From Bradyrhizobium sp. (GTDB lineage: Bacteria; Pseudomonadota; Alphaproteobacteria; Rhizobiales; Beijerinckiaceae): DNA of 51,876 bases. Of this stretch, positions 47,907 to 51,876 are shown piece by piece. Under the pieces are notes generated by a model that was given only the letters and a program-made list of their open reading frames with translations, made no database searches and was not told where the DNA came from. Each line of letters opens with the position of its first letter. Position 1 is the stretch's first letter. Both the position numbers and the translations under genes were made by a program. The stretch is from contig SSMV01000019.1 in the NCBI GenBank assembly GCA_004799435.1, forward strand, positions 1 to 51,876. The letters are read 5' to 3'.

Positions 47907-48035
47907 AACCTGTAACGGGCGACCGGGCATTGCGAGAACGCCCGTCTCGTATCCGACTGTGACGCGCGGCTTACGCGATCCTTTTGCAGTCTCCAGACGG
48001 CGACCCCATGCCGCCGCCCAGAATGTCGGTCGGCC

Positions 48036-48305
48036 TCAGCGGCGAATGCCGAGACGCTCAATCAATGTCTTGTAGCGGGCCTCGTCGGACTTCTTGACGT
48101 AGTCGAGCAGCGTACGGCGCTGCGACACCATCTTGAGAAGTCCGCGGCGGGAATGATTGTCTTTCACATGGGTTTTGAAATGACCCGTCAGGTTGGAGAT
48201 GCGCTCGGTGAGGATCGCAACCTGAACTTCCGGCGAACCCGTGTCGCCAGCATTTAAGGCATATTCGCGAATCAGCGCGGCCTTGCGCGCGGCGTCAATC
48301 GACAT
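48036..48305 (-). CDS. rpsO: 30S ribosomal protein S15
   Basis: From ATG 48305 the protein has 89 residues, exactly the family length ([40 protein letters not shown], then the [20 protein letters not shown] loop and end). S15 binds the three-way junction of 16S rRNA early in assembly. An open extension upstream is not taken as coding, since S15 begins at MSIDAA. It is followed by pnp. Confidence 0.98.
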
Positions 48306-48634
48306 CGATCTGTCCTTATCGCTTGCGGCGGACGTTAGGTCCGCCAGGGGATCTTTCGGCCGAGCCGGGATGTCGTCCAGGTCGGTCGCTTGAGCCGGCG
48401 CGCCTAGGCGTCGGGTGGGCGGCTTATACAGGAAAATCTTGGCCGCGCCAGTCAAATCACCGCCGCGCCGAGGTTCAACCGCCCACCCTGATCTTGAATC
48501 CAACCCGGAAAAGCCGGGGCAAGCATGATTTGCCTTGTCTTGATGGTAAATTGGGTGAGGGGACGTCTACCCCTCGATTGCCTCCCCCGCCATGGGGGGT
48601 TACAGCAGCCGCGCCCGAAATAGGATGACCGATA
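48306..48634. other. Divergent promoter region between rpsO and rph
   Basis: The 329 bases hold no gene. A TATAAG box reads leftward at 48428-48423, about 120 bases before rpsO, with TTGACT 21 bases further upstream, too far for a normal -35 spacing, so the promoter is uncertain. Near 48595-48605 runs of CCCC and GGGG flank the word ATGG before rph. No rRNA, tRNA or repeat is recognised. Confidence 0.3.
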
Positions 48635-49348
48635 ATGCGAGTTTCCAAACGCGCGCCCGACGAATTGCGCCAGGTGCGTTTCGAGCGCGGCGTCGCGCGT
48701 TACGCGGAAGGCTCGTGCCTGGTGCGTTGCGGCGAGACCCACGTGCTCTGCGCCGCCTCGCTCGAGGATAAGCCGCCGCCGTGGCTGCGCGGCCAGGGGC
48801 GCGGCTGGATCACCGCCGAATATTCCATGCTGCCGCGCGCCACCTCGACCCGAACAAAGCGCGAGGCGCAAGCGGGCAAGATTTCCGGACGCACGCACGA
48901 GATCCAGCGGCTGATCGGCCGCAGCCTACGCGCCGTCGTCGATCTGCCGAAGCTCGGCGAACGCCAGATCACGCTCGATTGCGACGTGTTGCAGGCCGAC
49001 GGCGGCACGCGCACCGCGTCGATCACCGGCGCCTGGATCGCCTTGCATGATTGTCTCAAATGGATGGTTCAGCGCTCGATCCTGCGCGACAATCCGCTGA
49101 AAGATCACGTCGCCGCCGTCTCCTGCGGAATCGTCAAAGGCGCGCCGGTGCTCGATCTCGATTACGCCGAGGATTCGACCGCCGAGACCGACGCCAATTT
49201 CGTCATGACCGGCTCGGGCGGCCTCGTCGAAGTGCAGGGCTCGGCCGAAGGCGCGCCCTTCTCCGAGGCCGATCTGACGACGATGTTGGCGCTGGCCCGC
49301 GCCGGCGTCGCCCAGCTCGTCGCGCTGCAGAAGGCGACGATCGCTTGA
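48635..49348 (+). CDS. rph: Ribonuclease PH
   Basis: The protein has 237 residues, the usual length, with [20 protein letters not shown] at the start, [14 protein letters not shown]-like [18 protein letters not shown], the [20 protein letters not shown] loop carrying the phosphate-binding arginines, and [20 protein letters not shown]. RNase PH trims the 3' end of tRNA precursors using phosphate. In many alphaproteobacteria it is followed by rdgB, which is absent here; instead a lower-G+C insert begins 128 bases downstream. Confidence 0.97.
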
Positions 49349-49430
49349 TGAAAAAACAAACGTCGCGTTTCCATGCTGCATCGCCAATGGCGGCGGGACT
49401 CACCCCGTCGAGGATGAAACTAGGGGTCAA

Positions 49431-49480
49431 AGCCTCCGTAGAGGCTCGGCCTATATCCCACGGGACGTTCTGACCCGTGG
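49431..49480 (+). promoter_or_regulatory. Two inverted repeats in the protease leader, one covering its start codon
   Basis: AGCCTC (49431-49436), CGTA, GAGGCT (49441-49446) form a six-base stem with a tetraloop. CCACGGG (49458-49464) and CCCGTGG (49474-49480) form a perfect seven-base inverted repeat with a nine-base spacer whose right arm includes the proposed GTG start at 49477. It could be an operator or a hairpin that hides the start codon, suggesting the insert is tightly controlled. Confidence 0.5.
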
Positions 49481-50286
49481 CTGACGAAATACACCCAACT
49501 GACGCGATGCATAAGATCGGCGCGGCCTGTTGCGATCCCCTGTGGATACAGCACCGGACGCTGGCGGGTGGACACGATAAGACGATCGACAACGCGACCG
49601 CCACCTTCATTAAATTCAGGGATCACAATTTCATTTGCACCTGCGCTCACGTTGTCGAAGCTGCGAAAGGTGATTTGGTACCAGCCTTAATGGTTGGCCA
49701 ACTTGTTTTGAACGTCGCGTCCTATCACGTCGACAACGTTTACCGACACAACTTCCGCTTTCCCGATCGTACGGAATTCGATATCGCGATCGCACCTCTG
49801 GATGCGTCTTATTGGAATCTTCTTCAGACCAAAAAAGCCAAGACCGCAATTGATCTTGACGCTTGGGAGGAGCCAGAATGGCTCACAACCGACACCTTTG
49901 TTGCCGTAGGTTATTTCAACGAACACAAGTATAATCATGAAGGTAAAGTCGCCACACCGTTGGGCCTCGTCGCCGCCGAGGCGGCTTCGTCGATGGGTGC
50001 GGAACTGCCTAAATTCGCGCTTTCATCGCGTCTGAACACCCCTCACGGATACTATTTCAGCGGCATGAGTGGCGGCCCGATATTTCTGCCGGTCTCGGCG
50101 GACAAAATGCTTCCGGTTGGGATTGTCTTTGAGGGCGGCCCAAGTTCGGGCCGACATAAAGCTAGATCGACATTGATCGATCCTACTGACATCCTCATTC
50201 GAGCCTATACTTTAACGCCGCTGATATTCGAAGATTGGCTTTCCAGGACTGGCTTGCTTCCGCCAACCCAGCACGCTCCGACATAA
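49477..50286 (+). CDS. Trypsin-like serine protease of a two-gene insert
   Basis: From GTG 49477 the protein has 269 residues with no signal peptide, so it should act in the cytoplasm. The chymotrypsin-fold triad is readable: His58 in CTCAHVV, Asp102 in EFDIAIAPLD and Ser198 in SGMSGGPIF, with preceding TATFIKF and the later VGIVFEGG strand. An ATG at 49507 is an alternative start. Cytoplasmic trypsin-like proteases are frequent as effectors in bacterial defence loci. The base composition is clearly less G+C-rich than the neighbours, and a DUF3800 gene follows on the same strand. The specific function is unknown. Confidence 0.8.
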   Translation: MADEIHPTDAMHKIGAACCDPLWIQHRTLAGGHDKTIDNATATFIKFRDHNFICTCAHVVEAAKGDLVPALMVGQLVLNVASYHVDNVYRHNFRFPDRTEFDIAIAPLDASYWNLLQTKKAKTAIDLDAWEEPEWLTTDTFVAVGYFNEHKYNHEGKVATPLGLVAAEAASSMGAELPKFALSSRLNTPHGYYFSGMSGGPIFLPVSADKMLPVGIVFEGGPSSGRHKARSTLIDPTDILIRAYTLTPLIFEDWLSRTGLLPPTQHAPT

Positions 50287-50390
50287 GCTGGAGGCCGGTA
50301 AGCGGTGTAGATTTCGTCGACCGATCTGAAGCCTACAAGTTGGCTGTTGCGGTGCCTGCGAAAGGTGTTCGCCGAGACTCGAGAGTCGGT

Positions 50391-51479
50391 ATGAGAACCT
50401 ACTATGTCGATGAGACAGGCTTCACCGGAGAAGATTTGCTCGCAGCCGACCAGCCGATCTTCGCGCAAGCTACGAACGACTTCTCGGATGATGAGGCGCA
50501 TCAACTCATCAAATCGACGTTCGGCGGAGTGCGTAGTGCTGAACTGAAATATAATCGATTAGCGCGCGACGGTCGCCATCACGACAAGATCGTCGAACTT
50601 GTCCGCGCCCTTGCTGCCGATCCGCTTCGCGCCGGGGTCTGGGTCGCTCACAAAGAATACGCCTTGATGACGCTTATTGTCGATTGGTGGATGGAGCCGC
50701 TTGCTCACATCTGCGGCCTAAATCTCTATAAAGATGGGGCAAACCACGGCATGGCGAACATGCTGTTCTGTTGTTTGGAGGGATTTTGGTCTGCGTCTTT
50801 TCGGCGAAAGTTGCTTTCGCATTTCCAACGCATGTTCCGCTCAAGAACGCTGGAGCGGTACAATGAATGCAGGACATTCGTCGAAAAGGAAAACGCGCAG
50901 ATAGACGAAAGTCGAAATGAGATTCTGCGGTACTTCTCGTTGTCATTCACGGTGTTAGGCCATCGCCATGTCGAGAACGTTCCGGCGCGTGTTCTCGACA
51001 TTGCTCTTCCTGGGCTAATTCAGCTCGGTCACCACTGGAACGAGCGACACAGCGGCCCATGGGAGCTTGTCCACGATCAATCGTCGAACATAGCGAAGCA
51101 AAAATGGATGTGGGATGTCTATTCATCCGCCGACATGGCTCCGGCTCGGTTTGAACATCCTGGTGTCGTTGCTCAGTTCCCAATGAACGTAGTCCGTACC
51201 CGTTTCGGTGATTCGGCCCGAGAAGAGCAACTTCAAATCTGTGACATCTTGGCGGGAGCATGCTCATCGTTCTGTCGGCTCGACAGAAGCAGCCCCGGTG
51301 ACCTGCTCTATAGAGAGAGGCTAAGCGAGGCGGGTATTGAGAAACTCACTTTGGGCGGTCTTTGGCCGAGCACGGATGTGACGCCAGAAAGTCTTGGTCG
51401 GAAAGGGTGGGACGGAAACGTCGCCATCGAGTGGATAGCAGAGCAAATGAGAGTTAGGGATCCGCCCCCCAGATCCTGA
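50391..51479 (+). CDS. DUF3800-domain protein paired with the protease
   Basis: From ATG 50391 the protein has 362 residues and begins MRTYYVDETGFTGEDL, the hallmark opening of DUF3800. Starts further upstream (for instance TTG 50235, which would overlap the protease end) cannot be excluded. Asp7 and Glu8 and the later LQICDILAGA (about 281-290) are the acidic residues that give the family a predicted RNase H-like metal site. The middle (about 60-225) is helical and not recognisable. DUF3800 genes are often found in mobile or defence-rich regions, but their activity is unproven. The region sampled near 50.7 kb is about 50% G+C, well below the flagellar cluster. Confidence 0.75.
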   Translation: MRTYYVDETGFTGEDLLAADQPIFAQATNDFSDDEAHQLIKSTFGGVRSAELKYNRLARDGRHHDKIVELVRALAADPLRAGVWVAHKEYALMTLIVDWWMEPLAHICGLNLYKDGANHGMANMLFCCLEGFWSASFRRKLLSHFQRMFRSRTLERYNECRTFVEKENAQIDESRNEILRYFSLSFTVLGHRHVENVPARVLDIALPGLIQLGHHWNERHSGPWELVHDQSSNIAKQKWMWDVYSSADMAPARFEHPGVVAQFPMNVVRTRFGDSAREEQLQICDILAGACSSFCRLDRSSPGDLLYRERLSEAGIEKLTLGGLWPSTDVTPESLGRKGWDGNVAIEWIAEQMRVRDPPPRS

Positions 51480-51485
51480 TTACTG

Positions 51486-51512
51486 AATTGCTTCGCTTCG
51501 CTCGCAATGACG
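51486..51512 (+). repeat. Incomplete copy of the palindromic repeat at the right end of the insert
   Basis: ATTGCTTCG followed by CTCGCAATGACG repeats the right-arm words of the element at 764-850, with the left arm missing. It begins seven bases after the DUF3800 stop and sits between the low-G+C pair and the Nudix gene, as a scar or boundary of the insert would. Confidence 0.8.
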
Positions 51513-51537
51513 CGGTTTGCGGGTGAGCTCTTGACCC

Positions 51538-51876
51538 TTACGGGTTCGTCGCCCAATGGCGCAGAATATGGTGAGCGATCGCCATCGCATTGGGCGCGGT
51601 CAGGCCCTCCGGATGGCGCTTCTCGAGCATCGCAAGCGCTTCCTCGCGCGAAAACCAGCGCGCGTCCTCGAGCTCGACCCCGTCGATCGCGATGTCGCTT
51701 TTGGCGGCGCGGGCGAGACAGCCGATCATCAGCGAGGAGGGGAAGGGCCAGGGTTGCGAGGCGAGATAAGAAACCTCGTCGATGATGACGCCGGCTTCCT
51801 CAAGGATCTCGCGTCGCACCGCCTCTTCGATTGTCTCGCCCGGCTCGACGAAGCCGGCGAGGCAGGAATACATGCC
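51538..51876 (-). CDS. nudC: NudC-type NAD(+)/NADH diphosphatase, C-terminal part (truncated by window edge)
   Basis: The leftward frame runs in from the right edge and ends at 51538, giving at least 112 residues. The Nudix box GFVEPGETIEEAVRREILEE with following AGV is complete, and SQPWPFPSSLMIG is the signature that separates NudC from other Nudix hydrolases. NudC hydrolyses NADH and removes the NAD cap from RNA 5' ends. The N-terminal part, with the zinc-binding region of most NudC proteins, lies beyond the window. It is convergent with the DUF3800 gene. Confidence 0.88.
   Translation of the reverse strand, partial: GMYSCLAGFVEPGETIEEAVRREILEEAGVIIDEVSYLASQPWPFPSSLMIGCLARAAKSDIAIDGVELEDARWFSREEALAMLEKRHPEGLTAPNAMAIAHHILRHWATNP

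What the first reader, a model, noticed from the sequence alone, without database searches (positions are those of the whole stretch)
49477..51479. Protease-DUF3800 gene pair in a low-G+C insert: candidate undescribed two-gene system
A cytoplasmic trypsin-like protease with readable His58/Asp102/Ser198 triad is followed on the same strand by a DUF3800 protein with the acidic YYVDETG start and ICDILAG end. Both differ in base composition from the adjacent genes, and the pair replaces the rph-rdgB order usual in this group. The combination of a protease and a predicted RNase H-like protein recalls effector/sensor pairs in bacterial defence, but neither gene belongs to a defence system I can name.
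Basis: partly seen in the sequence, partly recalled or inferred. Interest (0 to 1): 0.72.

Follow-up and report, generated by a model that had tools for sequence, protein, structure and literature searches.

The report
Inserted protease and RNase-H-like gene pair
A bacterial chromosome carries a small inserted cassette of two genes, a protease related to known anti-virus proteases and a protein shaped like an RNA-cutting enzyme, which looks like a mix-and-match defence or toxin module but was seen in this exact combination only once.

Summary
A cytoplasmic trypsin-like protease (49477-50286) and a DUF3800 protein (50391-51479) lie on one strand in a low-G+C insert (53-54% against 65%). A contig of the same assembly (C110) carries the site without them, rph followed by nudC. 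The insert (about 49347-51476) holds just these two genes, so it interrupts rph-nudC rather than replacing rph-rdgB.

The exact pair does not recur: no protease of this family in 132 DUF3800 loci, no DUF3800 beside 13 other protease-family loci. What recurs is a slot: the gene directly upstream of this DUF3800 subfamily is often a toxin or effector (Fic, RES, AbiEii, HipA, PIN, HEPN, Lit-like protease). Once, a relative of the protease precedes another putative nuclease, whose own relative follows AbiEii.

Best reading: a horizontally acquired conflict (defence/toxin) cassette with an exchangeable effector and a constant RNase H-like partner. Chance co-insertion is not excluded. A new variant, without experimental proof.

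The parts
49347..51476 (.). Inserted segment, about 2.13 kb, holding only the two genes; stands where contig C110 has 70 bp
   Evidence: Junctions against G000:C110; low GC
49477..50286 (+). Stand-alone trypsin-like protease, 269 aa, GTG start, no leader
   Evidence: profile of 4 relatives matches chymotrypsin-fold chains at E 8.6e-6
49648..49650 (+). His58 of the triad
   Evidence: conserved in 4 of 4 aligned relatives incl. window
49780..49782 (+). Asp102 of the triad
50068..50070 (+). Ser198 of the triad (GMSGGP)
50287..50390 (+). Spacer between the genes, 104 bp; no RNA family, no unusual fold
   Evidence: Rfam none at E up to 5 here; fold z 0.79
50391..51479 (+). DUF3800 protein, 362 aa, predicted nuclease with a type 2 RNase H-like fold; D7, E8, E102, D229, D285 kept
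51487..51512 (+). Right arm of a REP-like palindrome at the insert border; the left arm, present in C110, is missing here
   Evidence: 24 copies in the genome with up to 3 mismatches, 0 in the reversed control; arms checked
48635..49348 (+). rph, left flank
   Evidence: RNase_PH
51538..51876 (-). nudC (3' part), right flank, cut by the contig end
   Evidence: NUDIX; full copy on C110 with NADH pyrophosphatase zinc ribbon

Best explanation
A horizontally acquired two-gene conflict cassette (defence or toxin type). The downstream DUF3800 protein is the constant part, a predicted two-metal nuclease with a type 2 RNase H-like fold. The upstream gene is an exchangeable effector slot, filled here by a stand-alone LmuA-like trypsin-like protease where relatives carry AbiEii, Fic, RES, HipA, PIN, HEPN or a Lit-like protease. 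Proposed working: in unstressed cells the protease is kept inactive or scarce; phage infection or another nucleic-acid disturbance, sensed as the DUF3800 protein binds or cuts an RNA or RNA-DNA substrate, releases the protease, which cleaves host or phage proteins and stops growth or phage production. Shown by computation: the insertion, an intact protease triad, an intact set of DUF3800 acidic residues, the RNase H-like model, and the effector-then-DUF3800 order in relatives. Inferred: that the two genes work together, the direction of control, the trigger and the substrates.
For: Both genes arrived in one insert with nothing else, same strand, same odd composition. Protease family resembles the LmuA protease region (window E 1.2e-5, L170 1e-12, L187 7e-9). 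DUF3800 model pLDDT 94.2 and 11 of the 11 top-ranked PDB entries in VIA-align are RNase HII/HIII/H2; D7, E8, E102, D229, D285 in 75 of 75 sequences. Directly upstream of DUF3800 kin, same strand, gap 63 bp or less: Fic in 3 loci, RES 3, AbiEii 3 (one in pieces), HipA 1, PIN 1, HEPN 1, Lit-like protease 1. AbiEii plus DUF3800 occurs in two distant parts of the tree. Slot exchange from both sides: a protease relative is followed at 19 bp by a different putative nuclease in G590, and a 66% identical relative of that nuclease follows AbiEii in Rhizobium sullae.
Against: The exact pair was seen once. The closest protease relative by sequence in the viral set (L186, 33%) stands alone among phage structural genes. 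Gap of 104 bp, no translational coupling. Toxin seeds were picked from upstream genes, so the upstream bias is partly built in, and one HipA lies downstream elsewhere (L101). Most upstream neighbours are not toxins, and DUF3800 lies in gene-rich defence regions anyway. In RES and HipA loci DUF3800 is a third gene behind what looks like a complete toxin-antitoxin pair.
Confidence: 0.45

Rival explanations
1. Chance neighbours. Two independently mobile accessory genes, a protease and a DUF3800 nuclease, each acting alone, ended up in one segment carried into a permissive intergenic site beside a REP-like palindrome.
For: No co-occurrence elsewhere: 0 of 132 DUF3800 loci, 0 of 13 other protease-family loci. 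Protease relatives sit alone or with unrelated genes in plasmids and phages. Spacer of 104 bp.
Against: One insert with exactly these two genes, matching orientation and composition; both families show neighbour patterns of the same kind (effector then nuclease-like gene) elsewhere.
Confidence: 0.3
2. Nuclease-protease pair in the sense of Tuck et al. 2025: the protease cleaves the DUF3800 protein and so switches on a latent nuclease, which then degrades nucleic acid during infection.
For: Protease of the LmuA kind next to a predicted nuclease in the window, and next to a putative nuclease in G590. The mechanism is proven for MBL nucleases with HamA and Avs proteases (PMC12799240, abstract, first part of Results and passages).
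Against: The hallmark insertions that block the nuclease are absent: the window protein has a single residue (G190) in a column filled by under 20% of relatives, and its model has no low-confidence stretch except the last residues. Relatives with no protease neighbour have the same architecture. Protease is not fused to a sensor.
Confidence: 0.15
3. Classical toxin-antitoxin pair: protease as toxin, DUF3800 as a promiscuous antitoxin that binds or blocks it, like the DUF4065 (Panacea) domain.
For: Several unrelated toxin kinds precede DUF3800 directly, the neighbourhood logic used for DUF4065 (PMC8832971, passages only). No second antitoxin-like gene was seen upstream of Fic in L016.
Against: RES loci L071, L084, L097 and HipA locus L099 have a gene overlapping the toxin start that looks like the antitoxin (by eye). 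Complete conservation of an acidic catalytic set suggests an enzyme rather than a mere binder.
Confidence: 0.1

Closest known systems
Nuclease-protease pairs in Hachiman, AVAST, Lamassu and DRT systems (Tuck et al. 2025, PMC12799240)
   Same: A trypsin-like protease encoded next to a predicted nuclease; protease region similar to that of LmuA
   Different: Here the nuclease-like protein is DUF3800 (RNase H-like), not MBL; it is downstream, not upstream; the protease is a free 269-residue protein, not fused to HamA, Avs1a or LmuA; no gate insertions
DUF3800 proteins of type V-A2 and VI-F CRISPR loci (PMC10910872, PMC12669027; passages)
   Same: DUF3800 family, RNase H fold with rearranged catalytic residues
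   Different: No TPR part, and no CRISPR-like repeats in the window (no 23-base word three times)
Panacea / PanAT (DUF4065) combinatorial toxin-antitoxin network (PMC8832971, passages)
   Same: One constant domain beside many unrelated toxins
   Different: Different domain; DUF3800 has a conserved putative catalytic set; neutralisation unknown; far fewer loci examined here
Type 2 RNase H (RNase HII/HIII/H2)
   Different: Long helical insertion (about residues 88-220); DESGxTG in place of RNase HII's DEAGRG (recalled); fourth acidic residue D285 not at the RNase HII place; no sequence-level match
Lit / peptidase U49 abortive-infection protease
   Same: A protease 11 bp upstream of a DUF3800 gene in L095 (PADLOC Lit E 3.2e-13)
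   Different: Unrelated protease family; only one such locus seen

Membership tests
Nuclease-protease pair (Tuck et al. 2025) | Trypsin-like protease with intact triad | tested here: met
   H58, D102, S198, invariant in the 4-row alignment
Nuclease-protease pair (Tuck et al. 2025) | MBL-fold nuclease partner | tested here: not met
   Partner is DUF3800 with RNase H-like model
Nuclease-protease pair (Tuck et al. 2025) | Protease fused to HamA, Avs1a or LmuA | tested here: not met
   269 residues, only the protease domain found; LmuA match covers profile 14-203 of 425
Nuclease-protease pair (Tuck et al. 2025) | Active-site-blocking insertions in the nuclease | tested here: not met
   No window-specific insertion beyond one residue among 75 sequences; no disordered loop in the model
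Lamassu | LmuA together with an SMC-type LmuB | tested here: not met
   Flanks are rph and nudC; no other gene in the insert
DUF3800 (PF12686) | Profile match and conserved acidic motifs | tested here: met
   20.8 bits, 0.2 under the cut-off, but full-length alignment with 74 relatives and all invariant acidic residues
Type 2 RNase H (RNase HII) | RNase HII fold | tested here: met
Type 2 RNase H (RNase HII) | Catalytic tetrad and GRG motif at the RNase HII places (recalled) | tested here: inconclusive
   D7-E8 and D229 fit; D285 stands in for the fourth acid, GRG is not there; hhalign with E. coli RNase HII probability 0.4
CRISPR-linked DUF3800 (V-A2, VI-F) | CRISPR array in the locus | tested here: not met
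   No 23-base word occurs three times in the 51.9 kb window
Two-gene toxin-antitoxin system | The same two genes paired in several species | tested here: not met
   0 of 132 and 0 of 13 loci
Two-gene toxin-antitoxin system | Toxicity of one gene relieved by the other | not testable with these tools
   Needs expression tests

The most novel reading that the evidence does not exclude
This DUF3800 subfamily is a promiscuous module: an RNase H-fold nuclease coupled with a changing set of growth-stopping effectors (Fic, RES, AbiEii, HipA, PIN, HEPN, and proteases of two unrelated kinds, trypsin-like and Lit-like), a combinatorial defence network like the DUF4065 one but built on an enzyme. The window would be its trypsin-protease branch, with a free-living version of the protease domain known from Lamassu.
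Probability: 0.3. Interest if true: 0.78.

Novelty: new variant of a known kind. Interest (0 to 1): 0.5.

Why it matters
DUF3800 is widespread (matches in 197 plasmid records; 257 relatives among 400 candidate stretches in species genomes) and I saw no assay of its activity in the passages I read. If it is a shared nuclease partner of many toxins, a large set of unnamed two- and three-gene loci becomes predictable and testable at once. The window adds a stand-alone protease of the LmuA kind, suggesting that the protease part of fused defence proteins also circulates as a free gene on phages and plasmids.

Tried and rejected
Rejected: a fixed two-gene system (no co-occurrence); replacement of rph-rdgB; an RNA element ahead of DUF3800, prompted by a remark in PMC10910872 (the only Rfam match at E up to 5 in 48000-51876 was a chance-level microRNA match inside rph; fold z 0.79); transposon ends or a target duplication at the insert (no convincing terminal repeats); a CRISPR link.

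Led nowhere: the single protease sequence found nothing in plasmids, phages, genome contigs or viral contigs. The single DUF3800 sequence found nothing in viral contigs. The protease model, made from one sequence, is useless (mean pLDDT 30.4), so its fold rests on profiles and motifs. Foldseek against PDB and BFVD gave no match at E 0.001 or better. PDB sequence searches: phmmer with the window protease and the window DUF3800 gave best E 1.3 and 0.53; the DUF3800 profile's best was a designed chimera at E 0.0056 over the helical part. hhalign with E. coli RNase HII gave probability 0.4. NCBIfam gave nothing for either gene at a useful E. The 194-residue ORF beside the G590 protease had no Pfam, PHROG or PADLOC match and only chance-level PDB matches; 'PD-(D/E)XK-like' is my recalled reading of GVDIEA...GELKTT. 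The upstream gene shared by L018, L040 and L055 had no Pfam match, and L018's none in PADLOC or PDB; 'ADP-ribosyltransferase-like' is likewise a recalled motif reading. Paper searches found no paper; one search added nothing new.

Weak hits: at first I set aside hits in G546, G548, G577, G939, G969. One search shows them matching the 8-member protease profile (E 1.8e-4 to 1.3e-14), so I now count them as distant relatives; none has a DUF3800 hit in its 3.1-3.4 kb locus. Hits in G554, G650 and in frames of about 1500 residues in G994, G1035, G1053, G1081 (E 7e-4 to 0.01) are not counted.

Rows dropped: the upstream Pfam scan used 80 of 90 listed upstream proteins plus the window protease and rph; the downstream scan used 76 of 80. 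Only the first 25 of 61 and of 51 families were shown, so family counts there are lower bounds. A3 used 74 of 113 full-length relatives. One search kept the best 80 of 257 relatives. A motif scan for trypsin-like ORFs in the 132 loci also found none.

Full report
WHAT IS THERE. Window 49477-50286 encodes a 269-residue protease and 50391-51479 a 362-residue DUF3800 protein, both on the + strand. The protease has H58, D102 and S198 in fitting sequence settings and no leader. Pfam gives Trypsin_2 (E 3e-5) and DUF3800 (E 6.6e-4), each just below its curated cut-off. GC is 0.53 and 0.54 and GC3 0.58 and 0.59, against means of 0.65 and 0.77 for 37 other window ORFs.

THE INSERT. One end of contig C110 of the same assembly (12,737 bp) lies inside rph and, 70 bp after the rph stop region, runs into nudC; these ends are 95.4% and 90.8% identical to the window's flanks. 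Homology ends at the rph stop codon and resumes at the DUF3800 stop codon. So about 2.13 kb (49347-51476), holding only these two genes, stands where C110 has 70 bp. C110 may be a strain variant or contamination (estimated contamination 2.07%); either way it shows the uninterrupted arrangement. A REP-like palindrome marks the border: C110 has both arms, the window only the right one. The right-arm word occurs 24 times in the genome with up to 3 mismatches and 0 times in the reversed control. rdgB lies near rph in 14 of 26 loci but in 0 of 10 same-genus ones, so the rph-rdgB argument does not apply to this genus.

RARITY. The protease was found in 1 of 60 relatives, its own genome. As a single sequence it found nothing in plasmids, phages, genome contigs or viral contigs. 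Genome samples gave 4 of 385 (class) and 5 of 398 (phylum) at E 0.01, own genome included; of these only G590 is a clear relative (31% identity). A 4-row profile gave 5 of 337 and 5 of 349 genomes at E 0.001, own included: G590, G994 and G819 are clear, and G546, G548, G577, G939, G969 are distant relatives by a later profile. Three Pseudomonas plasmids and two viral contigs complete the set. DUF3800 relatives are common: 197 plasmid records and 257 of 400 candidate stretches in species genomes, best 80 kept. DUF3800 itself was in 7 of 397 order genomes, own included, and in 0 of 28 nearest relatives. It matches PHROG 12991, function unknown, at E 1.6e-37 over its whole length.

THE PROTEASE FAMILY. 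A profile of four members matches chymotrypsin-fold chains of the PDB at best E 8.6e-6. The window and the five relatives scanned (L170, L174, L182, L186, L187) all match PADLOC's LmuA inside its protease region, E 2.8e-4 to 1e-12, some over short stretches only; L170 and L187 also match RT-Protease_XI weakly (E 0.0018 to 0.0036). Settings are mobile: between a major head protein and an internal virion protein in L186, and after an Xre-type regulator and a metallo-protease gene (ImmA/IrrE-like by my reading) in L187; downstream of recombinase-like genes in L188 (by eye). In G590 the next gene, 19 bp downstream, is a 194-residue ORF with a recalled PD-(D/E)XK-like motif. A 66% identical relative of that ORF, found in two pieces, follows AbiEi-like and AbiEii genes in Rhizobium sullae. 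In the Pseudomonas plasmids the next genes are a 203-residue protein of unknown function or an Arc-type regulator.

NEIGHBOURS. I examined 132 DUF3800 loci (80 species contigs, 36 viral contigs, 12 plasmids, 4 genome-search loci). A protease profile from 8 sequences had 0 hits in their 4451 ORFs. The DUF3800 profile had 0 hits in 13 other protease-family loci, of which L182/L189 ends 123-224 bp downstream of the protease. So the exact pair is not conserved. Of 80 upstream proteins, Pfam showed among the first 25 of 61 families C5 methylases 3, Fic 3, RES 3, SMC/AAA 3, AbiEii 2, HNH 2, and HipA, PemK, Uma2, HEPN and BsuBI/PstI once each. Individual scans of 20 of them named PIN and Peptidase_U49 once each; the latter is PADLOC Lit at E 3.2e-13. 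With these toxins as phmmer seeds, Fic (3 loci), RES (3), AbiEii (3, one in pieces), PIN, Lit-like, HEPN and one HipA lie directly upstream on the same strand, gap 63 bp or less; the one copy elsewhere is a HipA 461 bp downstream in L101. The seeds came from upstream genes, so this count is biased in favour. Of 76 downstream proteins the main signal was 9 AAA/OLD-like ATPases; HigB and TIR appeared once each (first 25 of 51 families). In RES and HipA loci a further gene overlapping the toxin start looks like the antitoxin (by eye), so DUF3800 is an added third gene there.

TREE. In a 92-row quick tree the window protein groups (SH-aLRT 84) with L028 (AbiEii upstream), L029 and L030 (Uma2 upstream), on a long branch of 1.38, so its place is unsure. 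RES, AbiEii, Lit-like and HipA partners lie within one 28-row group, and AbiEii plus DUF3800 appears in two distant places.

MECHANISM. I commit to an exchangeable-effector cassette with DUF3800 as the constant nuclease-like part (0.45). Chance neighbours remain likely (0.3). Proteolytic activation as in Tuck et al. is tempting because the protease is of the LmuA kind, but protease fusion and gate insertions are absent (0.15). DUF3800 as plain antitoxin is least likely (0.1).

LITERATURE. In the held open library 11 papers contain the word DUF3800, 10 listed; I read passages of two. Searches for DUF3800 with defense and phage, with protease, and with RNA motif listed none whose title or shown abstract describes a protease-DUF3800 pair or a toxin-DUF3800 network. 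Of PMC12799240 I read abstract and introduction, the first part of Results and passages; of PMC8832971 passages; PMC10440598 was seen in a listing only. Preprints and most subscription papers were not searched.

Noticed in passing
L171 (G000:C110:12090-12737) against window 49172-51876: The assembly holds a second, 91-95% identical version of the rph-nudC stretch, without the insert: a strain variant or contamination inside the genome bin.
   Followed up: partly
window 51487-51512: One arm of a REP-like palindrome found 24 times in the genome; both arms are present at the empty site, one at the insert border.
   Followed up: partly
L095 3066-5062: A Lit-like protease gene 11 bp upstream of DUF3800: a second, unrelated protease in the same slot.
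   Followed up: partly
L018, L040, L055: A conserved three-gene order (518-524 aa protein, 237-242 aa protein with an ADP-ribosyltransferase-like motif by recall, DUF3800) in Rhizobium-type genomes.
   Followed up: partly
loci such as L056, L085, L088, L092, L099, L106: 9 of 76 downstream neighbours of DUF3800 are AAA/OLD-like ATPases; probably the 530-580 residue ORFs 27-48 bp downstream in these loci, which were not scanned one by one.
   Followed up: no
L170 5373-6768 and L177 1245-4001: An uncharacterised 170-194 residue nuclease-like ORF follows a trypsin-like protease in one genome and AbiEi/AbiEii in another.
   Followed up: partly
L004 68-2439: DUF3800 lies convergent to a gene that reads like a retron-type reverse transcriptase (by eye).
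   Followed up: no
L022 215-4041: The anti-phage gene ppl lies 26 bp upstream of DUF3800 on a Pantoea plasmid, with a caspase-family gene further on.
   Followed up: no
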